This document shows positions 17,321 through 57,048 of a stretch of DNA of 64,000 nucleotides, piece by piece (positions within the stretch are counted from its first letter, which is position 1; every line of letters begins with the position of its first letter). This DNA is from Cyrtodaria siliqua (Eukaryota; Mollusca; Bivalvia; Adapedonta; Hiatellidae), in the NCBI GenBank assembly GCA_037043455.1, contig JAWPHD010005597.1:62001-126000 (forward strand), in the 5' to 3' direction. The notes under the pieces were generated by a model that searched no databases, was not told the origin of the DNA, and saw only the letters and a program-made list of their open reading frames with translations. The translations under genes and the position numbers were made by a program.

Positions 17321-17365
17321 TTTTTTCTTGATAGTTATATAAATTTTAATCTTTAGTAAAAAAAA

Positions 17366-18277: not shown

Positions 18278-21200
18278 TACCGTTAGGTGCTATGTATCTT
18301 TTAGTGTCTAATGGTGATAGTGTTACTTTGTTTACTGTTATACCATATATCTCATGCTTTATTGATCGTATCATATTCATCTCATGGGTGTATTTTTTCT
18401 CGTTGAATAGAGCATCTTTATAGTTTTCAAAGTTGATATGTTTTTTGATTACTATTTTTACACCCTTTGCTTTTTTAATGTGTTGTTCATCCGCTCGTAG
18501 AATGGAATAGAGCTTTGGTCTTAATCCAACATACTCAACTGAAGGAACCAGCACATTCGTCTTTCATTTTACCTAATACTTTTTTATTGGTATCATCATG
18601 TAATGGATTTTTACTTGGAAAGTCACTAAAGTCATACTCTTTTTCATTTCCTGCATGTCTTTATACACATATTCTGTTTTGATATCTACCAGCAAACTGT
18701 CAGCGTCTGTGTATAATAAAGTACAGTCATCTCCGTACCTTTTTTTTTTCAGAGTATTATAGTACCAGTCATACATCATGTGCTTTGAAAAGTCAAGTAC
18801 AGACATTCCAACATAGATAGGTTTGTTAAGTATTAATTAGGTTTCATCAGAAAAATGTATACGTCTGTTAAAGTTGGGTTTGGCTATAATTTTTCTTATT
18901 TTTTTCATTTTCAGACCATCTGTTCTCACTAGTTTTATATCAGTTCGCTTGCGTAGGTTTTCCATTGTTTTGCCAAACACAGAGTTGTTCATAAGTTTGT
19001 AAAAATCTTTTTCAAAGACTGATTTAGCTAGCTTTCTAAAATCTGTGTTTAAGCAAATATATGATTCCATCCATGGTTTTTCATTGAATTCTAATACTCT
19101 ATGTATTTTCTTTATTTTCATACCCAAAGATAAATACAGTTGCAGGTTTTTATAATGTATCACATATTTTTCTTTGTCCATAAAATTGGGGACAAGTTTC
19201 TCTATGTTTATCATGTTATTATTTTCTAGCAGCTCTGTCTGGTACTCAGACAACCATTCTGTTTTGACTGCTAATCTTTCAGGTGCAAGTGGATAGTCAT
19301 TGTGGGATTTATGAAGTTCTTTGGGGTATTCCAAATCCACTTCTAGTATTTGTCCTTTACCTTGTTTTGGTTTAGAAAATGGTCCTTTATTGTTTTTGGC
19401 TTTCCATTCAAACCCATAATATGGAAGTGACTGACTCATTGCCCATCCATAAAGGTTATTAGCGTCATAATACATTATATGGTTTTTTTCTTTGTCAGGA
19501 TCATAGCCATTGACATGTGGATTACTTGCTTTGGCGTATCTTTTTGATACCATACTTATACCACCGCGCATACCTTTTTCTATAAATAAGTGCATGTCAA
19601 TGTCTGTTAAAAGTTCCAAATCTATTTGTGTGTGTTTTAGTAAAGCATCCCAAGATAAACCTGGTGCTGTATAGTAATGTAAAGGGTCAAGCTAGTATTC
19701 ACTCATACATGTTTTTCTAAAAGTTTGAAATACATCAGCCAGTAAAGTTACATCAGTTTTTAGATAGAGATCGTGATAGTCTCCCAATCTTTTGCAATTT
19801 AACTCTTTCCATACTTCCTCAGCATGTTTATAATAGTTAAGACTTATACCTTCATCTCTAAGACTACTACAAACTTTTCTATAGGTGGTAGTTGTGTTTC
19901 CTCGAATCTTTCCACACTGTCAATATATTCATAAGGATAAACACCTTTTCGTAAATGTAAATCTGTTTGTTCTCCGAACTGATTTTTGGTAATTTTAATA
20001 TCAGATTTATCCGTAGCATCAACCAATCTCTCTAGAGACGAAGCCATAAACTGAAAGCTATCCAAGAACCTTATTTGTCCAACGCTATTTTTCAGCATTA
20101 TTTGGGATGCATTTAATATTACCTCACATTTTATGTATTTTTTGCATTATAAAATGACTGTCACATCCTTTGAGGTTATGAAATACAACAGGTATGGGTG
20201 TTTTACCTGGTTTTATTTTTAGTTTCAGGTTACATTTTTTTTGTGCTGCACCTCTATATTCACCTGTAAAATGACAGTGGTCTCTTACGTTACTGTTTTT
20301 ACCTTTTCCTATTTTATTATTACATATCCAACATTGTGTTGCTTTTTCATGATCTTCCTCATGTTGTTGTGTCATGATTAATGGTTTTGGGTTAGTAAAA
20401 ATGTTGTTAATTTTGATTTTTTCACGTTCTAAGTGATTTAAAAACTTTTCAACAACATCTTCACCTCTGTAAATAACAGATTCTTCCGCTTTGCCATCAT
20501 ATCTGACAACCTGGTATCCAAAACCACACGCTTCGTGTTTATTTTGAATTTCAGATTTCTTTCCAAATTTGATTGATTGCGGTTTGATTATACTTTCAAA
20601 ATCAGCATATACTCGTATTGCATAAGGCACAGGCATCTGATTTTGATGATTTTTAAATTTTATGTGATTTTTACCTTCTTGCGGCATTTCTATTCTGCAA
20701 GAATTTTTGTTGATACCATCACAGTCTTCTTTGTGTTTGGTAAGTAGTCCTTTCCCAGGAAAGCCGTAAAGGCAACGATCGCAGAAGTAAGTTTGACCAT
20801 GGTGTTTGTTTTGGTCATAGAGTAGTTTATTCAGATTTTTAATCCAGCAATAGTGATATTTTGTTGTTAATTTTTGCTCACTGGGATAATCATCAGGGTT
20901 ATAGTTGTCATATATAATTCCTTCTTCATTCTCTGAATCAACTTTTTCAACCTCAGCGTCTTCAGATATTAAAAGCAGATGAATTCGCTCAATATTTGTT
21001 GTTTGTTCTGATATGTGATATGGGAAAACAATTACCTTTTTATTTTTTCCTGTTATGATATATCCATAAACGTTGATAGCAAGGTTGTTTTGTTTCTCTA
21101 TTTTGGGAATTTGAGAAATTGGAGTGGGAAAGTCAATACCATCCATATTCAACTTACCCATGTGTTTCTTATCATTAGATATTGGATTATTTTTATCAGG

Positions 21201-22019
21201 CCACAAAGCAGACACCAATGCCACTTCCAAGCACTTATTATCTTCATTCTTAACATTGATTATTGCTTTCTTGTCAGCTAATGCTTTAGGTAGAGGAATA
21301 TATGAAGAACCTTTTAATGGTTCATACTTTGGAATATTCAAATAAAACTTAACACAGTGATCAATCTCTAATCCTGATGCTGTGTTTGTAAATCTTTCAA
21401 GGCTCTCTTGTATATATGCAGATGATTCATCGTAAAACTCATTTATTGTTTCGGAGTTTAAGATTGCATTTTGTTCGCTGTTTAATACTGCTGTAGTGTA
21501 TTTTTTGGTAGCACCATCATCTTTGAATAGATTTACAGTGAGACCTAATTCAAACTTCAATCCATTCGTCTCTGTCAGCTCTTTGCTGATTTGTTTTGTG
21601 ATAATGGATTTCTTACCACGAAATAGTTTTTGAGAGTCTTTGTATTTCTCGACAGATATCTCGTATGCTTTGAAATAACCACATATTGGTTTGTCAACCA
21701 GTTTTAATTCTGAAGTAGATTTTTTATCTTTAAAAACTTGTTTTAGTTCATTTATAACATTTTCTCGTAATTTAGCATATTTCTGCTTTTGTTCATTTAT
21801 AACATTTTCTTGTAATTTATCATATTTCTGCTTTTCTCGTTTACGTTGTTTTTTAGCACGTCGTCTCTTGAGTAAATTTTCTAATGTTTGAGAATTAACC
21901 TCTTTTGGAGTTTCCTTTGAAACTTCTTTAAGAGCATCTGCCATCTTTCTAAGCTGATCATCATTAATTATTCCTTCCCGGTGTATTTGTAAAATGTATT
22001 TCACGCCTTCAGTACTCAT
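18240..22019 (-). pseudogene. polB: Protein-primed family B DNA polymerase (PolB), frameshifted in the 3' half
   Basis: The N-terminal 631 residues are intact (20124-22019): a lysine/glutamate-rich coiled coil; a block 'KAIINVKNEDNKCLEVAL' resembling a conserved Polinton pre-polymerase domain; a Cys2-His-Cys finger near 'YFCDRCLYGFPG'; Exo I 'YADFESI'; an HNH-like cysteine/histidine cluster 'RDHCHFTGEYRGA'; and Exo II 'FHNLKGCDSHF'. Further pieces follow in shifted frames: 'IRFLDSFQFM' with 'RKGVYPYEYIDS' (19844-20098); polymerase motif A 'MYYDANNLYGWAMSQ' and motif B 'KLMNNSVFGKTMEN' (18837-19619); motif C 'YTDADS' (18573-18806); and the C-terminus (18240-18554). The catalytic aspartates are present. 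At least four breaks disable it. It would replicate the linear element from protein-primed ends. Confidence 0.93.
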
Positions 22020-22090
22020 TTTTGTAATATATATTAAATTATTTTTTCTTCTTAATATAAAAAAATATTTATTATAACAAAAAAAAGAAA

Positions 22091-22188
22091 ATGGAAAACA
22101 CTAAGAAAATTGAAAACATTTGCCAATTTCTCAAAGTTGGATATCACGAGCCTTGTAAAAATAAAACAACAAAAGATTCAAACTATTA
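22091..22188 (+). pseudogene. Truncated duplicate of the zinc-protein 5' end
   Basis: Identical in its first ~30 codons to the gene starting at 22343, then cut off by the duplication joint, beyond which the reading frame enters the reverse complement of PolB. It arose with the 252 bp tandem duplication. Confidence 0.8.
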
Positions 22189-22271
22189 TCTGCCATCTTT
22201 CTAAGCTGATCATCATTAATTATTCCTTCCCGATGTAATTGTAAAATGTATTTCACGTCTTCAGTACTCAT
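22189..22271 (-). pseudogene. Truncated duplicate of the PolB N-terminus
   Basis: It encodes about 27 residues nearly identical to the PolB start (MSTED instead of MSTEG), then runs into the complement of the zinc gene. A duplication by-product that still has a copy of the native upstream region. Confidence 0.8.
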
Positions 22272-22342
22272 TTTTGTAATATATATTAAATTATTTTTTC
22301 TTCTTAATATAAAAAAATATTTATTATAACAAAAAAAAGAAA

Positions 22343-22579
22343 ATGGAAAACACAAAGAAAATTGAAAACATTTGCCAATTTCTCAAAGTTGGATATCACG
22401 AGCCTTGTAAAAATAAAACAACAAAAGATTCAAACTATTGCAGTTTACATAAATGCAGATTAAAGCAAAGTAAAGTTTTACCGTGTTTAAACTGTGGAAA
22501 AGGTACAAGTGCAAAATATCAAATATGTGTTGGTTGTGGTGCTCATATGTTAGATAAAAACATAGATACTGGGAAGTAG
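22343..22579 (+). CDS. Small zinc-ribbon Polinton protein
   Basis: Intact 78-residue frame with metal-binding pairs. 'YCSLHKC' is preceded by 'CQFL' and 'PCKN', then comes 'CLNCGKGT' with 'CVGCG' at the C-terminus. The CxxC...CxxC spacing fits a small zinc ribbon that could bind DNA or act as a transcription factor. I recall similar short Cys-rich proteins next to PolB in Polintons. It is divergent from PolB; in the ancestral layout both shared a ~70 bp promoter gap. It is the rightmost gene, ending 55 bp before the right TIR. Confidence 0.6.
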   Translation: MENTKKIENICQFLKVGYHEPCKNKTTKDSNYCSLHKCRLKQSKVLPCLNCGKGTSAKYQICVGCGAHMLDKNIDTGK

Positions 22580-22634
22580 TAAAACCATATAATGTTGAAT
22601 GTATTAGACTGAGAAATATTGAAATTTGATGCGG

Positions 22635-22887
22635 AAGAATCAATTTATATGATTCTCTCCTAAAAAATCCTTAAAAATCATATTTTGTTGATTTCATGTT
22701 TATTCGTTGATTTGGGTGTAAATCAACTTTTATTAAAAAATCTCAGAATATAACTCTAACACAGCTTATTCAGCAACTTGCGGTAGGAGTTTTTATATAT
22801 ATGTATTTTGGGTTGTTCTGCTGTAATTTGAGGCAAAACAAAGTGAAGCCGAAAAATTACAGCAGGACGCCCAAAATACATATATAT
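22635..22887. repeat. Right Polinton TIR
   Basis: Reverse complement of the left TIR (8564-8820), ending 'cgcccaaaatac' then an AT tract. The outer ~90 bp again form a hairpin between 'gtattttgggttgttctgc' and 'gcaggacgcccaaaatac', around the same loop sequence (ttgaggcaaaacaaagtg). Confidence 0.88.
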
Positions 22888-28865: not shown

Positions 28866-31761
28866 GTTTTTTTTGTGATTAATTTCTTTTATTCCATGTA
28901 AGACATAATACAATGTTATACAAAAGTTGTTCAGGTATCAATACCAACTATATGATTTTGAAACATAACACATTGTATGGTTACTATAAATAACAGAACA
29001 TTAATACAATGTCTTACAGGTAATCTTTTAAGTGTGAATATAAAAAAAAATAAAGACGAATGAAAGAAAGTAAAAAAGGAGAAAAGATAAGAAAAAGTAG
29101 GTTTACAGATGAGAAACTGTATGCATATATTTTTCTTATTTTTATTTTACATGTTTACCAATTTAATTTCGTGTGACCTAAGTTTGTTTTTGTTTATTGC
29201 AATAATTCTTTCTATTTGCTTGTTTTTTTGTAAATATGGTATGAATGCTGCAATACTGGGAATTGTTCTCGTGTATTTATTTTTAAAAATAAAATATTTA
29301 GCAAGTAAAATTATACAGTTTGGTAGGTTAGATTTTGATGAGTTGTATAACCCGAACGATATATTTTGATAACAGATGTTAAAAGGTTGATTGTTTGCAA
29401 TACAAAAATTATGAACTTGAGTCCAAAAGGCTCTTACAAAATGACATTCCCAAAACAAATGTTCTAGAGTTTCCGGATGTCTATCACAAAATTCACATAA
29501 ACTGGAATTAACTATTTTACATTTAAATAAAAACTGGTTAGTAGGTAAAATTCTCATAATGTATTTGTATTGAAATGATCTTAGTTTTGTGTCTATGGTA
29601 CTTTTGAAAGGTAGACAATGAATGGTTTTCCAGTTAAGATTGTTAAATATTTCTTCCCATTTAAGATGAGGTTTTATTTCATTATCATTATTAATTAGCT
29701 GAATTTGAATATTATATAACAATCTATTTGGAGAGTTACATTTCTTCACTTGGTGTAATAAAGGTGTTTTTTCAATTTCTATTACATTTTCTGTTTTAAT
29801 AATTTGTTTCCATCTTTTTGGTATACTTTGGGTAATAGTAAAATAATTGAGAAATTCGGAATCACTTATATTGTATAATTGTCTTAATCTTTCAAAAGTA
29901 TAAAACGACTTTTGTCTAGAATCATATATATCATTTATTGTTTTAATTCCTAGCTGTAACCATGATTTGTAAAATAATAAACTGCCTTTATTTTTAATGA
30001 AAGAATTATTCCATATGTACTGTTTAACTAAATTAACATCTTCAATATTAGAATTAAAATTAATTGTTGACCATGATTCAATAATGTTACATAAAAACGG
30101 CGTTTCGCTGAACATAGAATAACCATCTTTGCAACTGAAATTACTCTCAAAGATGAAGTTTCCGCCATATTTTTCCATTGAAGACATGTATATTTACTTC
30201 CATTCACCATTATTGTTTATATCTGTTAGTCGTTTAACCCAACTTGCTTTTATTGAATTTATAAAAAGTTCTATATCTATCATCTTCATTCCACCGTTTT
30301 CAATATTTTGTATAATTGTTTTACGCTTAATTTTGTCTGGTTTTCCCTCCCACAGAAATTCGAACATTTTATTTTTAATTAGGTTTATAGTGTTTATGTT
30401 GGGTGATTCAAGCACAGTTAGTGGAAAAATTAGTTTTGGTAGTGCAAATGTTTTAATTACTGAGATTTTACCTAAAATCGACAATTTATGTTTCTTCCAG
30501 TTATCAAGGCAGTTTTGAAATTGTTCTATTTTTGGATTGTAGTTTAAATCTTTATTTTTATTATTATCGTTCGTGAAAACGATTCCCAGTGTTGATGCTT
30601 TTTCATTAGTCCAAGCAAATTTTTTTTCTTTTCAAAATATTATCATGGATTTCTTTAAAGAGCCTGCACGGAGAATAATCGATTTCTTAGAATTTAACTT
30701 TAAACCGGAAATGGAGCTAAACTTATCAATTAATAATATTAAAGATTCAAATGAAGATTTATTTCCATTTAACATAAATGTGGCATCGTCTGCAAAAGCA
30801 GTGTATTTGATAGTGTTTTTGAGTACCTTTACGCCTTCAATATTGTTATCGTTATTTACAGCTTTATATAAAATTTCTATAGCTAATATAAACAAATATG
30901 GAGACAATGGGCATCCTTGCCTAACTCCTCTTTTTATATTAAAAAACTCTGAGTAATAACCATTATTTGACACACAACTTTGTGCGTCATTATAAAATAA
31001 TTTTATCCAGTTGATAAATTCGTTACCAAATTTAAAATATTGTAATGTTTTAAAAATAAAACCATGGTCAACACTGTGGAACGCTTTTTCAAAATCAGCG
31101 AAGAAGATCAGTCCCGGTCTATTGTCGTTATTCAAGTTGTCAATGCATTCAAAAATTGTCCTTATATTTTCACCAATGTAACGTCCTTTTAAGAATCCTG
31201 TATGACTGTTATTAATAATGTCTGGTAATACTTTTTTCATTCTGTTAGCTATAGTTTTTGTCGCACTTTTATAGTCTACATTTAATAAGCTTATTGGTCT
31301 CCAGTTTATCAATAGTGAAAGGTCTTTGTCTTTTTTAGGTAGAAGCGTTATAATACCTTGCTTCTGCAATGGTGTTAAAGTGTCATGCATGTATGAGTAA
31401 TTAATTGATTCAATGTAAAACTGTTTTATGTCATTCCAAAATATTTTATAAAATTCTGTTGATAACCCATCGGACCCTGGACTCTTGTTATTTTTCATGT
31501 CTTTTAAAGCTATTTTACACTCATATTCAGTTAAAACACCATTACATAATTCTTGTTGATTATCATTTAATTCATTAATATTATGATTATTGAAAAAATT
31601 GAAATTTTCGTCGCTTGTTTGAACCTTGCTGTATAGTTCTTTATAAAATCTTTTTGTTTCTTGTAATATATCTTTTGATTTTGTTAACTCCAAATTATTG
31701 CATGTAAGTCTATTTATTTTTTTAGATTCTGCCCTCTTTTTTTCTAAGTTTGAAAAATAAA
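28866..31761 (-). mobile_element. L1/Tx1-like LINE, 5'-truncated
   Basis: A non-LTR retrotransposon on the minus strand, inserted into the C-rich array. The 3' tail is A-rich (ttgtttttttt on the plus strand at 28863-28874) and lies at the left target-site duplication. The 5' end at about 31761 starts inside or just before the reverse transcriptase region, so the endonuclease domain is missing, as expected from incomplete reverse transcription. Frameshifts inside the coding part show that it is dead. Confidence 0.88.
29147..31740 (-). pseudogene. LINE ORF2: reverse transcriptase and C-terminal zinc knuckle
   Basis: The RT part (30632-31693) shows 'NNKSPGSDGLSTEFYK', 'INWRPISLLNVDYK', 'GFLKGRYIGENIR', motif A 'FFADFEKAFHSVDH', 'GVRQGCPLSPYLFI' and catalytic 'FADD'. 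The sequence then continues in other frames (30194-30484 and 29147-30187). The last carries the Cys-Cys-His-Cys knuckle 'CEFCDRHPETLEHLFWEC', typical of L1/Tx1-type elements. Two frame breaks (near 30640-30490 and 30190) interrupt the reading. Motif A has His where Asp is usual in 'KAFDS', another sign of decay. No endonuclease domain is present. Confidence 0.88.
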
Positions 31762-32420
31762 CTATATATGTTTTTATGTTTCTGTATTGTTTTAGTAAAT
31801 TTTATTATCTCTACTGGCCAAGTTCGAAAACCAACCAGATCGGACCAGTAACGGCGGAGTTACGGCTCTTATACTTCCACTCGAAACTCGATATATATAA
31901 AAGAAATACATATTTCTGTCTCGTTTTGGTCAATTCTTATGTGGCCCTGCCACCACCCTCCCCCACTCCCCGCCTGCCCAACTTGAAACTCGATTTTTAT
32001 ATATTATTTACATATTTTTGTGTTGTTTTGGTCAATTCTTACACATAAAGCTATGTTGCACACCCCCACCCATTACGCCCCTCCCCCGACTCCACCCCCA
32101 CTGAAAACTTTTTTTTTCATATTTCTGTGTTGTTTTGGTCAATTTGTGTTACCCCCACACCCCCACCCCAAACCATCCCAACAGACCATCATCACTTCCA
32201 CCCGAATGTTGTTGTTTTTTGTCTTTTTTTGCATATATCTATGTTGTTTTGTTTTATCAGTTTATCAATATGTTTCGCCCCACATCCATCCCACCACCAC
32301 CCGAATTTTTTTTGTTTTGTTTTTACATATGTCTGTGTTGTTTTGTTTTATTAAATATACAACTATATCAATTCTGCGCCCCCCCCCCCTCTCCCACCCC
32401 CATTGGTTTATGGGCTCCCC
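31762..32420. repeat. C-rich tandem array, right part
   Basis: It continues the array seen at 28190-28854 after the LINE: 'catatttctg', 'ttgttttggtcaattcttac' and poly-C blocks, with unit starts near 31905, 32010 and 32118, then more diverged ones near 32230 and 32327. It begins with the second copy of the 11 bp target-site duplication (31762-31772). Confidence 0.75.
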
Positions 32421-44298: not shown

Positions 44299-44304
44299 AA
44301 TGCG
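44299..44304. repeat. Target-site duplication of the nested element, left copy
   Basis: aatgcg here and attgcg at 55225-55230 flank the element and match 5 of 6. The 6 bp length is the one known for Polintons. Both copies are part of the satellite consensus gaatgcgtgg. Confidence 0.6.
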
Positions 44305-44519
44305 AGTAGTATAGATAGTGGGGGTACCAGCGCAGTTTCCCCATCACGGGGAACGAGAACAACTAGTGAAATATGCCAGTGGGGACTCAGGCGATACTCT
44401 CATTTACACACAAAGATCTAAATGTAAGCCACGCCTAAACCAACACCAACATATTTCATTAGTTTCCTCAAGCACCCCGCGAGGGAAACCCCGCTGATAC
44501 CCCCACTATCTATACTACT
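44305..44519. repeat. Left terminal hairpin, 215 bp
   Basis: It begins agtagtatagatagtggggg and ends with the reverse complement, so the whole segment folds back. Secondary palindromes sit within the arms (gtttccccatcacggggaac). The overall form recalls the T- or Y-shaped terminal hairpins of parvovirus-type genomes, though no parvovirus gene is present. Confidence 0.75.
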
Positions 44520-44537
44520 AATCAATCCGGTTTGCCA

Positions 44538-44737
44538 TTTTAGGAGAGCGCAATTTTATTTTTTGTCTACTTTCGGCGAATCTACTTTCGGCGAAGTTTT
44601 TCAATAACATTTGCAACTCGTTAAGCAAAGTCAGACGGAACCGGGCAGTAGTCTTCATCATCACTCTGCATATCATTTTTTACCATGGAGTATTTTATAT
44701 TTTCCTGCACTTTTCTATTTTGTATTTCAGTTCAAGA
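44538..44737. promoter_or_regulatory. Outer terminal motif block, left
   Basis: The 17 bp motif ttttaggagagcgcaat at 44538-44554 is followed by a T-tract and two sites ctactttcggcgaa at 44567-44580 and 44582-44595. The block is repeated in inverse at the right end (54794-54991) and, in part, at both ends of the inner unit. The tttcggcgaaa core is itself nearly palindromic. It is a possible binding site for a replication or integration protein. Confidence 0.6.
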
Positions 44738-44993
44738 AACTCTTCCCTGTTTTTATCCAGCTCACGTTCATAATTATCCATTTCAACCAGCAATCGTATT
44801 TTTTGGTGTCCATAAAATCATCACGGACTACCTCATATTCTACTTGGAGTTGCTTACCTCTCATCAATTATCTTCTATATTTTTCTGTTAAATGGTTAAG
44901 TTTTCTGCAAACCCTTTCTAATCTTTCTTGTTCCATTATATAATACTATATATAATTATTTGTAAACCCTTGAATGCTACTCAACTATTACAA

Positions 44994-45180
44994 TTAACTG
45001 TATGCTAACGTATCTTGTCCGTTATCTAGTATGTACCGTTTATCATCATAAGCTGATAAACTTTTTTTATTTATTGCATAGCTGCTTATGTTATGCTTTT
45101 GTGATCTAATAACTTTCATCTGATGATGAGCTTCTTTTACCGTAAACAAAATCTTTTTGTAATCGTCATGTGCTATCTGT
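44994..45180 (-). pseudogene. PolB C-terminal fragment
   Basis: About 62 residues ending at a true stop at 44994-44996. The stretch 'DDYKKILF', 'MKVIRSQKHN' and 'LSAYDDKRYILDNG' lines up with the C-terminus of the PolB in the first element ('ENYKDALF', 'MNMIRSIKHE', 'LSPLDTKRYIAPNG'). That region follows the polymerase catalytic core in Polinton PolB. The homology is cut off exactly where the inner unit begins (45182). It is therefore the remaining 3' end of a PolB gene that once ran rightward into the element, with its stop facing the left terminus. It cannot function alone. Confidence 0.78.
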
Positions 45181-45412
45181 TTTTTAGGAGAGCGCAATCT
45201 TTTTTTTTTCTACTTTCGCCGAAGCTACTTTTAACGAAATTTCCCAATCACACGACCCAAAACGGCATCAACACCGGGTCTTCTAACAAGAGTATTTCTA
45301 CATTTTGCAATATTGAACGGGAGGCAAGATGAGTTAGACAAGCTATTTTCATCCGACATTACAACAAACATACAGCAAGAATAATGCTACAAGCACCAAG
45401 AATAATCTAACT

Positions 45413-45930
45413 ATGTTCAATCAGAAAAATACAAGCAAGCATAGCATCAGGAAAAAAGATGGGGGAAAGATATCAAAGAATTGCAAGACGAATTGAAAAT
45501 CCTAGTAGCCCAAAGAAAGAAAAAAGAGAGCAGAAACAGCAGCAGGGATGAGACGGGGGAGAAATGTCAATTACAAAAACAATTACAGGGATTAGATGGA
45601 ATATTGAAAATCAAGAAAGACCAAAAAGAAGACCAAGAAGAAGACCAAAATGACACCGACGATACACGAGAAATGTCAGATGATAGTACAGATCAAAATG
45701 ACACCGTAGATAGTACAGAAGATATTCGGAATGAATTACGATATAGATTCGAGGATTTTTGGACAAAAATGTAAAACATGGTATGCAGAAAAGGGAAGAT
45801 CTGTATGAAATCGTATGAAATCGCAAACATATCTATGCTGTTGAAAAAACTTGGATATATAGCTGAAAAAGATAAACAAGAAATACTCGATTGGTTGAAC
45901 AAAGTTTCTGTCACAAATCAATACAGATAA
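45413..45930 (+). pseudogene. Acidic coiled-coil protein of the inner unit, left copy (gene A)
   Basis: The best ATG is at 45413, but its frame ends within ~80 bases. The main frame (45445-45774) encodes a basic helical start ('KELQDELKILVAQRKKK'), then a glutamine/lysine stretch and a highly acidic Asp/Glu/Thr run ('DQKEDQEEDQNDTDDT'). A second frame continues to a stop at 45928-45930 with a helical tail ('LKKLGYIAEKDKQEILDWL'). Frameshifts therefore split a product of about 160 residues. It is not recognised. Charge and helical character suggest a DNA- or protein-binding accessory factor. It precedes gene B in the same direction, with a ctactttcgg-type site between them (45940-45953). Confidence 0.5.
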
Positions 45931-45939
45931 TCTCATATT

Positions 45940-45953
45940 TTCACCGAAAGTAG
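45940..45953 (-). promoter_or_regulatory. Internal terminus-type site ahead of gene B
   Basis: ttcaccgaaagtag is the reverse complement of the ctactttcggtgaa variant seen at the element ends. It sits 38 bp before the gene B start, with an AT-rich TATA-like stretch (atattataca) between. The mirrored copy is at about 53951-53964. It could be a promoter element or an initiator-binding site. Confidence 0.5.
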
Positions 45954-45991
45954 AAATTTAATCTAAACCTATATTATACATGTTATATACA

Positions 45992-48683
45992 ATGAACTCA
46001 GAAAAAGCTACCAAAGAAAGGAACCTGGAGATAGACGGGAGCACCTTGGGGATTCGCTCGAGCAGATATCTAGCATACTATATAGCAAAAGAAAATGCCT
46101 ACGACAATAACCTGGTATCAGATATTTCAAAGGTGGACTACACAAATGGGAATAGTGGAAAAACAAAACTGCGATCCATCCCAGGGTTAGAAAAAGCTTT
46201 CATCGATGATATTTATGTATTTGGGTATCTAGGAAAAACAGATATTCAAGCAAAACAAGGAAAGGTGATGTTAACCGAAGGAAAAACAGGCGCTGCAAAA
46301 AATATTGTACAAACAATAGCAACATTTGTGTCAAAATCAATTGAACGTGGACGAGACTATTGTAATGTCAGAATCTATTGTACATTGAACAAGAATCAGA
46401 ACATCAGTATCTCGAAAACTATAGAAATAATTGAATCGTATACAAGTAGTAGATCAAGAAAGAACTGGTAACGTATGTGGAAAGGAAAACCAATAGGAAA
46501 TGTACTCGCAAAGATAGATGTGTCAAACATTCCCATGGGTGTAGTGGAAAAGAAGAAAATGAATCTCTGTCGGCTTCTAGAAAGCGTGGGACTAGGAATA
46601 TACTCTATAGATTACACAAGGGACTATTCTGGAACAATGAAAAGATCCAGTCTGGTTGATTATTTCAACTTTGACAGAACGAAGAGCCTATTTTTTGGAA
46701 TGCAGAGTGAAGAGCCCACAATTCTAGAGAATACGAAATCAGTCGGAAATAAGGTCTTCACTACTATACAAACGAGAGGTGAAAATGTCGTGAGAACAAA
46801 AATATACAACAAGATTGTCTCAAACTTTGAAGCGGGGGATGTACAAAAAGTATTCGGAGGTCATCTGGTTGATTTTGTTGATTCTAAATCTGAACGTTTG
46901 CGAAATACATTTTCACACCCGGATGTGCAAAAACGAGGATGTACTAGAGTTGAACTTTCAATATACGGAGACCACAACCATTTGTCAGGAACACATATTC
47001 CAAAAGAAACTGTAGAAGAACTCCCGGGTATATTCTGCATACAACCAGCACAAAATCAATGGGCAAATCTAGCAGAGAATATTGATAGAAATATGATTAT
47101 ACTAGACAGAGTTCAAAATACTTTGTACATTGTTTGGTATTGTAAAACTCACACTGGTAGAATTGTAGGGACTTCATTCTCACCAAAAGTATCATGGGAA
47201 AAAGCAAAGAAGTATGCTGTGTCAGCATTTGGCTTTCTTCATTGCCCAGTATTTGTGCTTTATATACTGCGATACGAATATGAAAAATTTCTATTTGCCC
47301 CGCTAGAATGCTACACTAAAGAAAAAGATACGAAAACACTCCTTTGTGGTCAAAATCCTTCCAAGGCTAGAACAACGAAGATAGAACCAACAGACTACCT
47401 CCCACCAACAAATTGTGTAGAGTGGATATGGAAGAGAAAGGGGAAGAATAGAATAGGTGATGAGAAGCCTCCATTTCAAATTCTTCGACAAGAAACAGAT
47501 AGAAAGATATCAATGAACTCCACCAAGAAAAGAGAAAAGATAATTGCACAGATATTTGAAGAAGAGGAAAAGGGAAAATGGGTAGAGGTGAACAAAAAAG
47601 TACAGGAAATAGTTTGGGAGGAAAAAGAAGAGGAGTTGAGTGAGTTGGGTAAAACATATGAGAAAAATAGAAATAGAATAGAAAAGATTAGAAAACGAGT
47701 AGAACAATTGTATTGGATTTTCCCGATTGTATAGAATATGTTAGTCGCATACCTACCGGAAAATACTATCTGGTGGGGTTTGCAAATTATACCAAGAAAA
47801 AATATGATTCAAAAATTTGCTATTTGAAAAACGATGCCGATCATCATACAGTCTATGCTACTGAAGGATTGAAGAGGATTTGTAAACAAGTAGAAGAGCT
47901 CGGACTCACAATTGATGATAACTGGAGCGACTCACGTTCACGCATACTAGACAAAGTACTAGAGGAAATATTTCCTCCTACAGAAAATACATGGAGTGGA
48001 AAAACAATACAATGGAATCCGACAAAGATATTGGAGATTAACTGTAGCAAAAATAGAAAAACTATACTAGAAAGTGAAAAGGAGTATCTAGAGTCAAATG
48101 AATATTTGTTGGATTGTGATGAAAAGTGAAAAAGGCAGTGAGTTGTATTTCTATGCCAGAGGGTGACTACATGTGCAGGAAGTGTGTGCGGCATAGAAAG
48201 AAAACAATACCATGTTTGTACTATGAAGAAAATGATGTTCCAGGTTTTGGTTACTATCTAGAAAAAGAAATGAAGAAAGTTACAGAAGAAACGAAGTCAC
48301 CAATTGTAGTACACCTTGGAAAAGAAAAGACAACACCTACAAAGAAGGAAGCCAGATTAGCAATTACAGTACTAGATGATATAGTAGAAAATAGTATTGA
48401 ACAAACGGCTCCTCCGAGTTCTACAAAACATGTCAAAGATATTCCGAAAACAACATACAAAGTATGCAAATATTCTAGAACGACATTTCGTAGGAAAGAT
48501 AGAATATATTTATATGTGATCATTGACGGCAAAGAAGTAGGGATATATGGCTACTACCTACAAAGAGAAATGGAAAAGTATCTAGGGGATGGAAAGAAAA
48601 AACATATCTTGATCAGTATTGGAATAGATAGAAATACTCCAATAAGAATGTCTGATGTTGATGTTATTTGGACAGAATGTTGA
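45992..48683 (+). pseudogene. Gene B of the inner unit, left copy: large unrecognised protein with initiator-like features
   Basis: One gene of about 900 residues, interrupted by TAA at 46472-46474, a frameshift near 47720 and a one-base loss near 48126. Order of parts: an N-terminal domain of ~160 residues; a block with 'IYSIDYTRDYSGTMKRSSL'; 'RTKIYNKIVSNFE'; 'SHPDVQKRGCTRVELSIYG'; a hydrophobic core 'NTLYIVWYCKTHTG'; a long Lys/Glu-rich helical region; and a C-terminus with 'CISMPEGDYMCRKC' and further cysteines. The combination of D-Y-T-R-D, K-x-Y-N-K and T-R-V-E motifs is reminiscent of Rep_trans-like rolling-circle initiators, and I recall similar uncharacterised invertebrate proteins. 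That link is weak. I see no Walker motifs. Confidence 0.5.
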
Positions 48684-48699
48684 GATTTCGATTCAGATG

Positions 48700-48862
48700 A
48701 TTGGGGAAATTTCACCGAAAGAGAACTTGCTAAACTTCAGGTGCATCTCTACATTTCATTTCGGTAGAGGTATACCAAACGGGGTTCTCGTAATGTTTTT
48801 TCCTAGGACATGCTAGCAAGAGGACTTACCAACTTTCAGATGTGTCTCTACGTATTTTTCGG
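48700..48862. repeat. ~105 bp subterminal repeat at the inner end of the left arm
   Basis: 'gaacttgctaaacttcagg...catctctacatttcatttcgg' is followed by a related unit 'gacttaccaactttcaga...gtctctacgtatttttcgg'. The right arm has the same two units, and its second is longer, running into the spacer (about 51000-51044) with 'tagagatatatcaaaatggg'. The left second unit was cut by the 25 bp array. Confidence 0.65.
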
Positions 48863-48867
48863 TTCTC

Positions 48868-50999
48868 GATTCTGTGATATCTCAGTATTATTGATTCAAG
48901 GCTGTTCCAGTATTCTTGATTTGATGATATCTCAGTATTCTTGGTTTGCTGATATTTCTGTATTCATGATTTGATGAATCTCCAGATCTCTGATTTGCTA
49001 CTATCCTGGTATTCTTGATTTGATGATATCTCCAGATCTCTGATTTGCTGCTATCTCAATATTTCTGATTTGATGATATCTCGAGATATCTGATTTGATG
49101 ATATCTCAATATTTCCGATTTGATGATATCTCAATATCTCTGATTTGCTGCTATCTCAATATTTCTGATTTGATTATATCTCGAGATATCTGATTTGATG
49201 ATATCTCAATATTTCCGATTTGATGATATCTCCAGATTTCTGATTTGCTGCTATCTCAATATTTCTGATTTGATGATATCTCGAGATATCTGATTTGATG
49301 ATATCTCAATATTACTGATTTGATTATATTTCGAGATATCTGATTTGATAATATCTCAATATCTCTGATTTGATTATATCTCAATATTTTTGATTTGATG
49401 ATATCTCGAGATATCTGATTTGATGATATCTCAGTATTTTGATTTGATGATATCTCAATATCTCTGATTTGCTGCTATCTCAATATTTCTGATTTGATGA
49501 TATCTCGAGAATTCTGATTTAATGATATCTCAATATGTCTGATTTGATGATATCTCCAGATCTATAATTTGCTGCTATCTCAATATTTCTGATTTGATGA
49601 TATCTCGAGATATCTGATTTGATGATATCTCAATAGATATCTCGAGATATCTGATTTGATGATATCTCAGTATTCTGGATTTGATGATATCTCAATATCT
49701 CTGATTTGCTGCTATCTCAATATTTCTGATTTGATGATATCTCGAGATCTCTGATTTGATGATATCTCAGTATTCTTGATTTGATGATATCTCAATATTT
49801 CTGATTTGATGATATCTCGAGATCTCTGATTTGATGATATCTCAGTATTCTTGATTTGATGATATCTCAATATTTCTGATTTGCTGCTATCTCAATATTT
49901 CTGATTTGTTGCCTCATATTCTGATTTGATGATGTTCCAGTATTCTTGATTCTGTGATATCTCAATATTCTTGATTCTATGATATCTCAGTATTCTTGAT
50001 TCTTGATTCTGCCATATCTCAGTAATCTTGATTTGATGCTGTTCCAGTATTCTTGATTCTGCGATATCTCAGCATGCTTGATTCTATTATATGTCAGTAT
50101 TCTTGATTCGATGCTATTTCAATATTCTTGATTTGATGCTATTTCAGTAGTCTTGATTCTGTGATGGATTCCGCGCTATCTCAATATCTCTGATTTGATG
50201 ATATCTCAGTATCTCTGATTTGCTGCTGTTTCAGTATTCATGATTTGATGATATCTCAGTATCTCTGATTTGATGATATCTCAGTATTCGTGGTTTCCTG
50301 CTATTTCGGATCCCTGATTTGATGATATCTCGGTATCTCTGATTTAATGATATCTCAGTATCTCTGATTTGATGATATCTCAGTGTCTCTGATTTGCTGC
50401 TATTTCAGTATCTCTGATTTGATGATATCTCAGTATCTCTGATTTGATGATATCTCAGTATCTCTGATTTGCTGCTATTTCGGTATCTCTGATTTGCTGC
50501 TATTTCAGTATCTCTGATTTGATGATATCTCAATATCTCTGATTTGATGATATCTCAATCTCTGATTTGCTACTATTTCAGTATTCTTGATTTGATGATA
50601 TCTCGAGATCTCTGATTTGATGCAAGTTCAGTATTCTTGATTTGGTGGTATCTCAGTATTCTTGATTCTGTGATATCTCAGTATTCTTGATTCTGTGATA
50701 TCTCAGTATTCTTGATTCTGTGATATCTCAGTATTCTTGATTTGCTGCAAGTTCAGTATTCTTGATTCTGTGATATCTCAGTATTCTTGATTCTGTGATA
50801 TCTCAGTATTTCTTGATTTGATGATATCTCAATATCTCTGGTTTGCTGCAAGTTCAGTATTCTTGATTTGATGATATCTCAGTATTCTTGATTGTGTGAT
50901 ATCATATTATTCTTGATTCTGTGATATCTCAGACTGCTTGATTTGATGCTATTTCAGCATCCCTGATATTTTGATATCTCTGACTGGGTGATATTTCAA
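48868..50999. repeat. Central 25 bp tandem array
   Basis: About 85 copies of a 25 bp unit, tgatttgatgatatctcag plus tattct, with variants using 'gctgctatctcaatattt' and others. Many joints give the perfect 16 bp palindrome gatatctcgagatatc (for example near 49075, 49267 and 49395). Without spacers and with diverged units it is a satellite, not a CRISPR. It separates the two inverted arms. Confidence 0.92.
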
Positions 51000-51224
51000 C
51001 ACGTAGCTCCACAAACATTACCAGAACCCATTTTGATATATCTCTACCGAAAAATACGTAGAGACACATCTGAAGTTTGGTAAGTCCTCTTGCTAGCATA
51101 TCCTTGGAAAAACATTACGAGAACCCCGTTTGGTATACCTTTATCGAAATGAAATGTAGAGATGCACCTGAAGTTTAGCAAGTCCTCTTTCGGTGAAATT
51201 TCCCCAATCATCTGAATCGAAATC

Positions 51225-53923
51225 TCAACATTCTGTCCAAATAACATCAACATCAGGCATTCTTGTAGGAGTATTTCTATCTTTTCCAATACTGAGCAAG
51301 ATATGTTTTTTCTTTCCATCCCCTAGATACTTTTCCATTTCTCTTTGTAGGTAGTAGCCATATATCCCTACTTCTTTGCCACCAATGAACACATGTAGAT
51401 ATATTCTATCTTTCCTACGAAATGTCGTTCTAGAATATTTGCATACTTTGTATGTTGTTTTCGGAATATCTTTGACATGTTTTGTAGAACTCGGAGGAGC
51501 CGTTTGTTCAATACTATTTTCTACTATATCATCTAGTACTGTAATTGCTAATCTGGCTTCCTTCTTTGTAGGTGTTGTCTTTTCTTTTCCAAGGTGTACT
51601 ACAATTGGTGACTTCGTTTCTTCTGTAACTTTCTTCATTTCTTTTTCTAGATAGTACCCAAAACCTGGATCATCATTTTCTTCATAGTACAAACATGGTA
51701 TTGTTTTCTTTCTATGCCGCACACACTTCCTGCACATGTAGTCACCCTCTGGCATAGAAATACAACTCACTGCCTTTTTCATTTTTTCATCACAATCCAA
51801 CAAATATTCATTTGACTCTAGATACTCCTTTTCACTTTCTAGTATAGTTTTTCTCTTTTTGCTGCAGTTAATCTCCAATATCTTTGTCGGATTCCATTGT
51901 ATCGTTTTTCCACTCCATGTATTTTCTGTAGGAGGAAATATTTCCACAAGTACTTTGTCTAGTATGCATGAACGTGAGTCGCTCCAGTTATCATCAATTG
52001 TGAGTCCGAGCTCTTCTACTTGTTTAAAAATCCTCTTCAATCCTCCAGTAGCATAGACTGTATGATGATCGGCATCGTTTTTCAAATAGCAAATTGTTTA
52101 ATCATATTTTTTCTTGGTATAATTTGCAAACCCCACCAGATAGTATTTTCCGATAGGTATGCGACTAATATATTCTATACAATCGGGAAAATCACAATAC
52201 AATTGTTCTACTCGTTTTCTAATCTTTTCTATTCTCTTTCTATTTTTCTCATATGTTTTTTCCAACTCACTCAACTCCTTTTCTTTTTCCTCCCAAACTA
52301 TCTCCTGTACTTTTTTGTTTTCCTTCTACCCATTTTCCCTTTTCCTCTTCTTCAAATATCTGTGCAATTATCTTTTCTCTTTTCTTGGTGGAGTTCATTG
52401 ATATCTTTCTATCTGTTTCTTGTCGAAGAATTTGAAATGGAGGCTTCTCATCACCTATTCTATTCTTCCCCTTTCTCTTCCATATCCACTCTACACAATT
52501 TGTTGGTGGGAGGTAGTCTGTTGGTTCTATCGTCGTTGTTCTAGCCTTGGAAGGATTTTGACCACAAAGGAGTGTTTTCGTATCTTTTTCTTTGGTGTAG
52601 CATTCTAGCGGGGCAAATAGAAATTTTTCATTTTCGTATCGCAGTATATCAAGCACAAATATTGGGCAATGACGAAAGCCAAATGCTGACACAGCATACT
52701 TCTTTGCTTTTTTCCATGATACTTTTGGTGAGAATGAAGTCCCTACAATTCTACCAGTGTGAGTGTTACAATACCAAACAATGTACAAAGTATTTTGAAC
52801 TCTGTCTAGTATAATCATATTTCTATCAATATTCTCTGCTAGATTTGCCCATTGATTTTTAGCTGGTTGTATGTAGAATATACCCGGGAGTTCTTCTACA
52901 GTTTCTTCTAGAATATGTGTTCCTGACAAATGCTTGTGGTCTCCGTATATTGAAAGTTCAACTTTAGTACATCCTCGTTTTTGCACATTCGGGTGTGAAA
53001 ATTGTATTTCGCAAACGTTCAGATTCGGAATCAACAAAATCAGCCAGATGACCTCCGAATACTTTTTGTACATCCCCCGCTTCAAAGTTTGAGACAATCT
53101 TGTTGTATATTTTTGTACTCACGACATTTCCACCTCTCGTTTGTATAGTAGTGAAGACATTACTTCCGATTGATTTCGTATTCTCTAGAATTGTGGGCTC
53201 TTCACTCTGCATTCCAGAAAATAGGCTCTTCGTTGTGTCAAAGCTGAAATAATCAACCAGACTGGATCTTTTCATTGTTCCAGAATAGTCTCTTGTGTAA
53301 TCTATAGAGTATATTCCTAGTCCCACGCTTTCTAGAAGTCGACAGAGATTCATTTTCTTCTTTTCCACTACACCCATGGGAATGTTTGACACATCTATCT
53401 TTGCGAGTACATTTCCTATTGGTTTTCCTTTCCATATACGTTCCCAGTTCTTTCTTGCTCTACTACTTGTATGCGATTCAATTATTTCTATAGTTTTCGA
53501 TATACTGCTGTTCTGATTCTTGTTCAATATTCAATTACAGATTCTGACATTACAAAAGTCTCGTCCACGTCCAATTGATTTTGACACAAATGTTGCTAGT
53601 GTTTGTACAATATTTTTTGCAGCGCCTGCTTTTCCTTCGGTTAACATCACCTTTCCTTGTTTTGCTTGAATATCTTTTTTTCCTAGATACTCAAATACAT
53701 ATATATCATCGATGAAAGCTTTTTCTATCCCTGGGATGGATCGCAATTTTGTTTTTCCACTATTCCCCTTTGTGTAGTCCACCTTTGAAATATCTGATAC
53801 CAGGTTATTGTCGTAGGCATTTTCTTTTGCTATATAGTATGCTAGATATCTGCTCGAGCGAATCCCCAAGATGCTACCGTCTATCTCCATGTTTCTTTCT
53901 TTGGTAGCTTTTTCTGAGTTCAT
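51225..53923 (-). pseudogene. Gene B of the inner unit, right copy
   Basis: Mirror copy of the gene at 45992-48683, starting at an ATG whose complement is 53921-53923. The lesions differ from the left copy. A stop and frame change near 53530 split the N-terminal domain, frameshifts near 52970-53090 break the middle, and more lie near 52250 and 52085 (a TAA in place of a lysine or similar). In turn it reads through the left copy's stop (ARKNWERIWKG) and has no break near 51780, where the C-terminal 286 residues (51225-52085) are one open frame. Neither copy alone is intact. The independent breaks show that both were full genes when the duplication formed. Confidence 0.5.
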
Positions 53924-53975
53924 TGTATATAATATAGGTTTAGATTAAATTTCTACTTTCGGTGAAAATATGACA

Positions 53976-54416
53976 TTATCTGTATTGATTTGTGACAAAA
54001 AAGTTGTTCAACCAATCGAGTATTTCTTGTTTATCTTTTTCAGCTATATATCCAAGTTTTTTCAACTGCATAGATATGTTTGCGATTTCATACAGATCTT
54101 CCCTTTTCTGCATACCATGTTTTACTTTTGTCTGTACTATCATCTGACATTTTCTCGTGTATCGTCGGTGTCATTTTGGTCTTCTTCTTGGTCTTCTTTT
54201 TGGTCTTTCTCGATTTTCAATATTCCATCTAATCCCTGTAATTGTTTTTTGTAATTCATTGACATTATTCCCCGTCTCATCCCTGCTGCTATTTTTGCTC
54301 TCTTTTTTCTTTCTTTGGACGGCTAGGATTTTCAATTTGTCTTGCAATTCTTTGATATCTTTCCCCCATCTTTTTTCCTGATGCTATGCTTGCTTGTATT
54401 TTTCTGATTGAACATA
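53976..54416 (-). pseudogene. Gene A of the inner unit, right copy
   Basis: Mirror copy of the acidic coiled-coil gene at 45413-45930. It lacks an internal segment of roughly 65-70 bp within the Asp/Glu-rich run (deleted between the gacaaaag and agtacagatg-type stretches) and has extra frame changes. The helical tail region (IANISMQLKKLGYIAEKDK) is preserved. Confidence 0.45.
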
Positions 54417-54653
54417 GTTAGATTATTCTTGGTGCTTGTAGCATTATTCTTGCTGTATGTTTGTTGTAATGTCGGATGAAAATATCTTGTCTAACTCATC
54501 TTGCCTCCCGCCTATCGTTCAATATTGCAAAATGTAGAAATACTCTTGCTAGAAGACCCGGTGTTGATGCCGTTTTGGGTCGTGTGATTGGGAAATTTCT
54601 TGAAAGTAGCTACGGCGAAAGTAGAAATAAAAAAAGATTGCGCTCTCCTAAAA

Positions 54654-54791
54654 GCAAAGCAAGAAATATTCAGGATTGAAAAAGTAATACGACGTGATTA
54701 CAAAAAGAAACAATCGTTGATTAAATGGAAGGGTTACAATGAAGATTTCAATAGTTGGGTTCCATTCAAGGATATTGAAAATATTAAATAA
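54654..54791 (+). pseudogene. Chromodomain fragment (integrase C-terminus)
   Basis: About 40 residues, 'FRIEKVIRRDYKKKQSLIK', then 'WKGYNEDFNSWVPFKDIENI', and a stop at 54789-54791. This is a chromodomain: hydrophobic start, W-K-G-Y-x-x-x-F-N-S-W core and closing acidic helix. In Polinton and retrotransposon integrases such a domain forms the C-terminus and steers integration. It starts exactly at the inner-unit border (54653), so the catalytic part was lost. The 3' end points to the right terminus, mirroring the PolB tail at the left. An unrelated chromodomain gene is possible, but less likely given the context. Confidence 0.78.
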
Positions 54792-54793
54792 TA

Positions 54794-54991
54794 TCTTGAA
54801 CTGAAATACAAAATAGCAAAATGTAGGAAAATAAAATACTCCATGGTAAAAAATGATATGCAGAGTGATGATAAAGACTACTGCCCGGTTCCGTCTGACT
54901 TTGCTTAACGAGTTGCAAATGTTATTGAAAACCTTCACCGAAAGTAGATTCGTCGAAAGTAGACAAAAAATAAAATTGCGCTCTCCTAAAA
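54794..54991. promoter_or_regulatory. Outer terminal motif block, right
   Basis: Inverted copy of 44538-44737, with attgcgctctcctaaaa at 54975-54991 and ttcaccgaaagtag and ttcgtcgaaagtag sites just inside. The two arms diverge abruptly inside 'cttgaactgaaatac', where the gene remnants begin. Confidence 0.6.
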
Positions 54992-55009
54992 TGGTAAACC
55001 GGATTGATT

Positions 55010-55224
55010 AGTAGTATAGATAGTGGGGGTATCAGCGGGGTTTCCCTCGCGGGGTGCTTGAGACAACTAATGAAATATGTTGGTGTTTGTTTAGGCGTGG
55101 CTTACATTTAGATCTGGCTGTGTAAATGAGAGTTAAGCCTGAGTCCCCCCTGGCATATTTCACTAGTTGTTCTAGTTCCCCGCGATGGGGAAACTGCGCT
55201 GGTACCCCCACTATCTATACTACT
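55010..55224. repeat. Right terminal hairpin, 215 bp
   Basis: It starts agtagtatagatagtggggg and closes with the complement ending ctatctatactact. It has the same length and fold as the left terminal hairpin, with substitutions scattered in both arms. Confidence 0.75.
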
Positions 55225-57048
55225 ATTGCGTGGTTTTGAATGGCTCTGTATTTATCCATGTACATGTTGTTTGTTTTGAATGAGTGGTTTTGGATGACCT
55301 GTATTTATTCATGTATACGATGTATGTTTGGAATGCGTGGTTTCGTATGGCTATGTTTTGAACGCGTAGTTTCGTATGGCTCTGTATTTATCCATGTACA
55401 TATTGTTTGTTTTGAATGCGTGGTTTTGGATGGCTCCTTATATATTCATGTAAAGGCAGTTTGATTTGAATGCGTGGATTTGGATGGCTCTTTATTTATC
55501 CATTTACATGTCGTTTGTTTTGAATGCGTGGCTTTGGATGGCTGTATATATATCCATGTACATGTTGTTTGTTTTGAATGCTCGGTGTCGTATGGTTCTG
55601 TATTTATCCATGTACATGTTTTGAATGAGTGGTTTTGGATGACCTGTATTTATTCATGTATACGATGTATGTTTGGAATGCGCGGTTTCGTATGGCTATG
55701 TTCTGAATGCGTAGTTTCGTATGGCTCTATATTTATACATGTACATATTGTTTGTTTTGAATGCGTGGTTTTGGATGAACCTGTATTTATCCATGTATAT
55801 GTTGAATTCGTGGTTATGGGTCACCCTGTAGTTATCCATGTACATGCTGCTTGTTTGAATGCGTGGTTTTGGATGGCTCTGTATTTATCCATGTATATGT
55901 TGTTTGTTTTGAATGCGTGGTTTTGGATGGCTCCTTATATATTCATGTAAAGGCAGTTTGCTTTGAAGGCATGGATTTGGATTGCTCTTTATTTATCCAT
56001 TTACATGTCGTTTGTTTTGAATACGTGGCTTTGGATGGCTCTGTATATATCCATGTACATGTTGTTTGTTTTGAATGCTCGGTTTGGTTTCGTATGGCTC
56101 TGTATTTATCCATGTGCATGTTGTTTGTTTTGAATGCGTGGTTTTGGATGGCTCAGTATTTATACCTGTACATGATGTTTGTTTTGAATGCGTGTTTTTG
56201 GATGGCCCTGTATTTATCCATGTCCATGTAGTTTGTTTTGAACGCGAGGTTTTGGATGGCTCTGTATTAATCCATGTACATGTTGTTTGTTGTGAATTCG
56301 TGGTTTTGGGTCACCCTGTATTTATCCATGTACATGCTGCTTGTTTGATGCGTGATTTCGGATGGCTCTGTATTTATTCATGTACATGTTGTTTGTTTTG
56401 AATGCGCGGTTTTGGATGGCCCTGTATTTACTCATGTACATGTTGTTTATTTTGAATGCGTGGTTTTCGATGACCCTGTATTTATCCATGTACATGCTGT
56501 TTATTTTGAATGCGTGATTTTGGATGGCCCTGTATTTACTCATGTACATGTTTTATGTTTTGAATGCTTGGTTTTGGATAACCCTTCATTTATCCAAGTA
56601 CATGTTGTTTGTTTCAATGCGTGGTTTTAGATGGCTCTATATACATCCATGTACATGTTGCTTGTTTTAAATGCATGGTTTTAGATGGCTCTATATATAA
56701 CTATGTATATGTTGTGTGTTTTGAATGTGTGGATTTGGATGGCTCTGTATATATCCATGTACTTGTTGTTTGTTTTGAATCCGTGGTTTTTATGGCTCTG
56801 TATTTATACATGTACATTTTGTTTGTTTTGAATGCGTGGTTTTTGATTGCCCTGTATTTATCCATGTAAATGTTTTTTGTTTTGAATGCGTTGTTTTGGA
56901 TGGCCCTGTATTCATCAATGTACATGTTGTTTGAATTGAATGCTTGGTTTTGGATAGCCCTGTATTGATCCATGTACATGTTGTATGTTTTGAATGCGTG
57001 GTTTTTGATGGCTCTGTATTCATTCATATACATGTTGTTTGTTTTGAA

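What the first reader, a model, noticed from the sequence alone, without database searches (positions are those of the whole stretch)
44305..55224. A giant gene-bearing palindrome nested inside a gutted Polinton shell
Seen: terminal hairpins, ~433 bp outer inverted repeats, then two ~3.6 kb inverted arms, each with the same two genes facing inward, around a 2.1 kb array of palindromic 25 bp units, the whole flanked by a 5/6-matching 6 bp duplication in satellite DNA. Known: Polintons have 6 bp TSDs and AG...CT termini, but no described class that I know has a palindromic core with duplicated genes and a satellite centre. Inference: the inner unit may be a head-to-head dimer or replication intermediate of a linear, hairpin-ended genome captured by a Polinton.
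Basis: partly seen in the sequence, partly recalled or inferred. Interest (0 to 1): 0.9.

Follow-up and report, generated by a model that had tools for sequence, protein, structure and literature searches.

The report
Palindromic element wearing borrowed Polinton ends
This 10.9-kb stretch is one of a family of gene-carrying palindromic DNA elements whose two ends are pieces of Polintons (virus-like transposons), and it likely copied itself with its own predicted DNA-nicking protein while likely borrowing Polinton enzymes to enter the chromosome.

Summary
The palindrome is real and very unlikely to be an assembly accident. Thirteen further loci of the same 2.88-Gb genome were read; nine show two mirrored arms (three with deletions). 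In three full copies the repeat array is inverted too and its core is a palindrome. The outer 877 bp (left) and 571 bp (right) of the window copy are the left and right ends of one Polinton subfamily, so the 'Polinton shell' is supported. Other copies wear ends of another subfamily, or two left or two right ends. The inner element has a precise edge, GGAGAGCGCAAT, mostly directly after TTTTA of Polinton DNA. Whole units carry 6-bp target duplications (5 perfect, window 5/6). Arm differences fall equally on codon positions (97/96/94), while variants private to one element but in both its arms favour third positions (14/21/43): the arms were near-identical at insertion. The roughly 900-residue protein is an undescribed family with relatives in a sea slug; its model resembles Rep_trans initiators and keeps their catalytic residues, but a profile comparison did not confirm kinship. 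Mechanism proposed, not shown: nick-and-join capture of Polinton ends, copying around an inner hairpin, integration by Polinton integrase.

The parts
44299..44304 (.). left target duplication AATGCG (right copy ATTGCG at 55225-55230)
   Evidence: other copies ACCAGT, ACTGGA, AACAAC, CATCAA, CAGTAC are 6/6
44305..45181 (+). left cap: left end of a Polinton (433-bp TIR plus subterminal region)
   Evidence: 94.9% over 884 columns to the left end of Polinton C1062
44305..44520 (+). terminal hairpin, left
   Evidence: z -13.1
44538..44598 (+). about 61-bp stretch inside the TIR like the inner element's edge, with two 15-bp repeats TCTACTTTCGGCGAA; present in the Polinton of subfamily A read here, absent from that of subfamily B
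45182..45186 (+). TTTTA at the left joint (present in uninterrupted Polinton DNA)
45187..54648 (.). inner palindromic element, both edges GGAGAGCGCAAT
45300..45965 (+). region of a smaller upstream frame in the left arm (charged, coil-like by eye), broken; mirrored at about 54540-53940
   Evidence: no family search run on it
45980..48683 (+). left-arm copy of the long gene (predicted Rep_trans-like protein with C-terminal repeats), broken by stops and frame changes
   Evidence: homologues; model
51225..53923 (-). right-arm copy of the same gene, broken at other places
48863..50980 (+). central 25/50-bp array, one direction only in this copy
54649..54653 (-). TTTTA at the right joint
54654..55224 (-). 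right cap: right end of the same Polinton subfamily (integrase tail plus TIR)
   Evidence: 92.7% over 578 columns to the right end of Polinton C1062; 96.7% over 182 bp across the tail
54654..54791 (+). last codons of a Polinton integrase with a chromodomain-like tail (label recalled, no family search)
   Evidence: frame; the integrase-side frame of Polinton C2379 runs into the same residues
55009..55224 (-). terminal hairpin, right
   Evidence: z -13.8

Best explanation
The stretch is a palindromic mobile element with Polinton ends attached to both of its edges, and it likely propagated as a satellite of Polintons: its own predicted Rep_trans-like protein would nick and join its GGAGAG edge to TTTTA sites in Polinton DNA, copying around an inner hairpin would make the second arm, and Polinton integrase would insert the capped molecule. 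Shown by sequence: two mirrored arms in nine further loci, a palindromic centre in three full copies, sharp joints, Polinton caps of several kinds, 6-bp duplications, and a pattern of arm differences that fits arms near-identical at insertion. Predicted: the protein's fold and active site. Inferred and untested: nicking, strand transfer, copying around the hairpin, integration in trans and any packaging.
For: Family trait: 6 of 6 contigs with two full-length arm hits within 20 kb have them facing inward (which scored 40 of 309 candidates); two arms in 9 of 13 loci read. Full copies: the array turns direction around a core in C10528, C4477 and C1331; the C1331 centre is 94.7% self-inverted over 867 bp. 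Caps: Polintons C1062 and C2379 carry PolB and integrase matches and their ends match the caps. Joints: uninterrupted Polinton DNA reads TTTTA at 14 of 18 joints, i.e. at 9 of 12 distinct sites, against about 0.9% of positions. Second sample of 20 loci: edge found in 15, TTTTA before it in 8, ATTTA in 4, CATTA, TATTA and ATTCA in 1 each. Duplications: 6/6 in C65, C1331, C1706, C4477, C10528. Arm differences neutral, lineage under selection. In C1331 the two Polinton caps are 98.1% alike over 1,619 bp, like the arms (98.5%), so there the cap is part of the palindrome. Protein: first Foldseek PDB hit of both models is the Rep_trans protein RepDE (E 0.045 and 0.0042); K-x-Y-x-K, acidic motifs and R-x-E are conserved, matching residues named in PMC4797284. 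Iteron-like 15-mers: 8 in the window, all in the element (4 of them in the caps), 0.04 expected.
Against: Profile comparison with ten inovirus Rep_trans proteins found nothing (probability 0.2%); family searches gave only chance-level matches (one relative also carries kelch repeats); no Foldseek hit below E 0.001; TBP chains score higher than Rep_trans by VIA (8.4 against 6.3). Caps differ between the two sides in window, C65, C9636, C1706 and C2655, so one copying event does not explain those. Not every joint is simple: C1261R has only 52 nt of Polinton-like flank, in C16336L the Polinton match stops 266 nt before the edge, C10528R lacks the edge, and the Polinton match comes within 2 nt of the edge in 9 of 15. 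Some joint sites recur (577 in window, C10528, C637; 1725 in C1331, C3268), so capped forms may descend from one another and captures are fewer than joints. Two of eight elements have an arm closer to another element than to its partner (window, C3640). None of 16 arms tested (of 22) keeps a frame of 850 aa.
Confidence: 0.6

Rival explanations
1. An ancient chimera: one palindrome entered one Polinton once, the interior was lost, and the compound has since spread as a non-autonomous Polinton, with later recombination swapping its ends with resident Polintons.
For: Several joint sites are shared between loci; Polinton-type ends are abundant (2,643 and 2,222 first-look candidates, 40 scored each), so exchange is easy.
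Against: Twelve distinct joint sites, nine at TTTTA; left/left caps in C4477 and right/right caps in C1331; caps of subfamilies whose TIRs are only about 80% alike on inner elements 3-4% apart.
Confidence: 0.25
2. An ordinary foldback transposon or inverted duplication made by DNA repair, unrelated to any replication cycle.
For: Long inverted repeats with tandem arrays are known from foldback elements (recalled; PMC4079207 seen in a search listing only).
Against: Arms carry a gene whose lineage variants show third-position excess, and the same palindrome recurs with 6-bp duplications and sharp edges.
Confidence: 0.07
3. The palindrome is an assembly artefact.
For: Palindromes are hard to assemble; no reads were available.
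Against: Arms differ by 1-3.6%, gene lesions of the two window arms differ, and nine other loci show two arms with different flanks, five of them with perfect duplications.
Confidence: 0.02

Closest known systems
Polinton/Maverick elements
   Same: terminal repeats, AG...CT ends, 6-bp duplication, integrase tail
   Different: no polymerase, complete integrase, ATPase or capsid gene found inside; the interior is an unrelated palindrome
Bidnaviridae (PMC4061559, abstract and outline seen)
   Same: there a parvovirus genome is proposed to have integrated into a Polinton and gained its terminal repeats
   Different: bidnaviruses gained PolB and lack the endonuclease; here a Rep-like gene is kept and PolB is absent
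Rep_trans (PF02486) rolling-circle initiators
   Same: predicted fold and catalytic residue pattern
   Different: not found by profile comparison or Pfam; about 900 aa with a long helix and extra C-terminal domains; eukaryotic
IS200/IS605 single-strand transposons (recalled)
   Same: precise edge placed 3' of a short fixed target
   Different: different enzyme fold expected; here both edges are identical and carry Polinton ends
Foldback elements and oyster Helentrons with satellite-like arrays (PMC4079207, PMC7492417: search listing only)
   Same: long inverted arms or internal tandem arrays
   Different: no gene-bearing complete palindrome among them known to me

Membership tests
Polinton/Maverick | terminal inverted repeats of Polinton type | tested here: met
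   TIRs 93-94% to those of Polinton C1062
Polinton/Maverick | 6-bp target duplication | tested here: met
   6 of 6 elements with both ends resolved, window 5/6
Polinton/Maverick | protein-primed PolB and complete rve integrase gene | tested here: not met
   only the integrase tail remains; arm frames gave no Pfam polymerase or integrase hit
Rep_trans (PF02486) | match to the Pfam model | tested here: not met
   absent from the complete lists for seven window pieces at E up to 1 and for P0002; among 61 members it is not in the 25 families shown of 28 (E up to 0.1) or of 56 (E up to 10); three and 31 families were not shown
Rep_trans (PF02486) | catalytic fold | tested here: inconclusive
Rep_trans (PF02486) | R/K-x-Y-x-K strand and three acidic metal ligands on separate strands | tested here: met
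   K268, Y270, K272 in 60 of 60; D64 43/43; D201 57/58; E319 58/60, gaps set aside, on separate predicted strands; the pairing with RepDE D46, D142, E214 is my reading of PMC4797284, not a superposition
Rep_trans (PF02486) | nicking and rejoining of DNA | not testable with these tools
   needs protein
Bidnaviridae | PolB, parvovirus-type capsid and SF3 helicase | not tested
   no specific search; no Pfam hit in the arm frames scanned

The most novel reading that the evidence does not exclude
A new class of eukaryotic mobile DNA: a hairpin-tipped replicon that steals the telomeres of Polinton viruses by nick-and-join at TTTTA, becomes a complete gene-bearing palindrome each time it copies itself, and rides Polinton integrase (and perhaps capsids) as a satellite.
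Probability: 0.45. Interest if true: 0.95.

Novelty: categorically new. Interest (0 to 1): 0.88.

Why it matters
It would show in action a step like the one proposed for the origin of bidnaviruses, a small replicon taking Polinton ends, and make it testable. It also describes an undescribed protein family with 304 relatives at E up to 0.001, a eukaryotic element that is a complete palindrome with genes, and a possible satellite or parasite of Polintons.

Tried and rejected
Rejected: assembly artefact (different lesions in the two arms, nine other loci, perfect duplications in five); simple insertion into a Polinton followed by deletion (left/left and right/right caps); a clear parvovirus NS1 link (the best NS1-type rows in the viral fold library were E 0.86); flip/flop inversion of the terminal hairpins (same orientation 94%, inverted 71%).

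Led nowhere: viral contigs and genome-contig scans found no relative; a PDB profile search gave nothing below E 0.1; the Propionibacterium phage B5 replication protein chosen as a yardstick proved to be Rep_1, so ten inovirus-type Rep proteins were used (one checked as Rep_trans); hhalign against these was negative. A further genome-wide search with the inner edge did not complete, so I read the joints of 20 loci already listed instead. Four of 13 loci could not be judged for a second arm: C1261 shows one arm; the stretches of C7521 and C637 and the contig of C16336 end first. Of 23 arm flanks, 18 went into; the five left out (C10528R, C1261R, C16336L, C2655R, C3640L) lacked the edge or lacked Polinton sequence reaching the joint. 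In one search, 5 of 20 stretches lacked the edge, and two of the 15 Polinton matches are weak (C1196, C12272). My notebook says 15 of 18 TTTTA joints; the recount is 14 of 18. The frame test took 16 of the 22 arms.

Full report
What is there. Window 44305-55224 is an inverted repeat whose arms pair along their length except for one outer stretch and small gaps. From outside in: a 6-bp duplication (AATGCG/ATTGCG) in 54-bp satellite DNA, a 433-bp terminal repeat that begins with a 215-nt hairpin, unequal outer stretches, two 3.6-kb arms and a 2.1-kb one-directional array of 25/50-bp units. The long gene of each arm is broken, at different places in the two arms.

The same genome. The window lies in a 2.88-Gb assembly without a name. 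A search with 1.7 kb of the arm scored 40 of 309 candidates and listed 41 matches at 90-96%, apart from the window itself at 100%. Six contigs hold two full-length hits within 20 kb, and in all six the copies face inward. I read 20 stretches from 13 loci. Two arms are present in nine: C65, C10528, C4477, C1331, C1706, C19438, C2655, C3640 and C9636. In C2655 and C3640 the second arm lacks ORF2, in C9636 it is reduced to the edge region and the cap, and in C19438 one arm was read only in part. Four loci could not be judged. In C10528, C4477 and C1331 the array turns direction around a core; in C65 it turns near one end without a visible core; in C1706 the directions are mixed; the other arrays read run one way. 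The three centres read are palindromes: 94.7% self-inverted over 867 bp in C1331, 86.3% in C4477, and 97.8% outside a roughly 270-bp loop in C10528. The window copy keeps only one direction of array, so it has probably lost the other half and the core.

The shell. The 396-bp terminal sequence of the window has 2,643 first-look candidates; the 40 scored are 91-100% alike, the window's own two ends included. Among them I count eight inward pairs 14.7-17.1 kb apart, three of 22-25 kb and one of 3.75 kb. One pair, C1062, encloses PolB and integrase matches to the window's other Polinton, and frames that look capsid-like to me. Its left end matches window 44305-45186 at 94.9% and its right end matches window 55224-54649 at 92.7%. 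Thus the shell is two ends of one Polinton subfamily. C65 wears ends of another subfamily: 94.4% and 90.1% to Polinton C2379, of which I read only the two ends (PolB and integrase matches); its TIR is only 78-80% like the window's, although the inner arms of window and C65 differ by only 3-4%.

The joints. Laid beside uninterrupted Polinton DNA, the joints are sharp: Polinton sequence runs through TTTTA and then switches to GGAGAGCGCAAT. Polinton DNA reads TTTTA at 14 of 18 joints, TGTTA, ATTTA and TATTA at one each, and one joint (C1331L) is deviant. There are 12 distinct sites, nine of them TTTTA in at least one reference, where TTTTA occupies about 0.9% of positions (binomial 9e-17; shared descent makes this only a guide). 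In a second sample of 20 stretches, 15 contain the edge; TTTTA precedes it in 8, ATTTA in 4, CATTA, TATTA and ATTCA in one each. All 15 flanks have a Polinton match, two of them weak, and it comes within 2 nt of the edge in 9. Caps are left/right in window, C65 and C9636, left/left in C4477 and right/right in C1331; in C1706 one cap is a left end and the other lies within the TIR, so its side cannot be told. The subfamily-A Polinton carries a 61-bp piece of the edge inside its TIR at a TTTTA, absent from the subfamily-B one.

Insertion. Six elements have both outer ends resolved: C65, C1331, C1706 (the right end of C1706 lacks the outermost 8 nt), C4477, C10528 and the window. The first five have perfect 6-bp duplications, the window 5 of 6. 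Polintons C1062 and C2379 have perfect ones too. In the other four two-armed loci (C2655, C3640, C9636, C19438) the ends were not resolved.

Arms near-identical at insertion. In eight elements the two ORF1 arms differ by 1.07-3.62%; in six of the eight each arm's nearest relative is its partner (exceptions: window and C3640). Differences between partners fall at codon positions 97/96/94. Variants found in both arms of one element and nowhere else in the sample fall 14/21/43, those shared by two or more elements 17/14/29, and those in one arm only 128/136/135 (window alone, over a longer stretch, 26/24/25). So the lineage was under selection, both arms then carried the same private changes, and decay since insertion looks neutral. 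In C1331 the caps are part of the palindrome: 98.1% over 1,619 bp.

Mechanism. Inferred: the protein cuts its edge at TTTTA/GGAGAG and joins the 5' edge to a TTTTA 3' end in Polinton DNA; copying around the inner hairpin doubles the molecule; Polinton integrase inserts it. Like caps on both sides (C1331, C4477, and C3640 as far as read) fit capture before doubling; unequal caps (window, C65) need a capture at each edge. The 15-bp repeats at TIR, edge and gene start (8 in the window, all in the element, 0.04 expected) could be binding sites.

Known or new. Six literature searches of an open-access library listed nothing that I could recognise as a Polinton-capped palindrome with a Rep-like gene; subscription journals are mostly missing and bioRxiv is not held. 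The nearest idea in print that I saw is the bidnavirus origin (PMC4061559, abstract).

Noticed in passing
window 8564-22887: A second, different Polinton-like element (A32-type ATPase, rve integrase, PolB-like frames); its terminal repeat of at least 119 bp also looks like a hairpin by eye.
   Followed up: partly
L043/L044 (C1062), L045/L046 (C2379): Two Polinton subfamilies whose TIRs differ by about 20% although their left subterminal regions are both 93-96% like the window's; TIRs may turn over fast.
   Followed up: partly
L044:5024-5521: Frame in the Polinton with a phospholipase-A2-like stretch (label from memory, no search run).
   Followed up: no
window 30632-31801 minus: Reverse transcriptase frame, RVT_1 E 9e-36.
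   Followed up: no
C-terminal part of the long gene (window 48132-48683; P0002 residues 604-685): Repeated small beta domains whose strand order in the model resembles an OB fold; possibly single-strand DNA binding (by eye).
   Followed up: no
C1706 right end (L033): Right terminus starts 8 nt inside the usual end, again at AG, directly after a perfect duplication.
   Followed up: no
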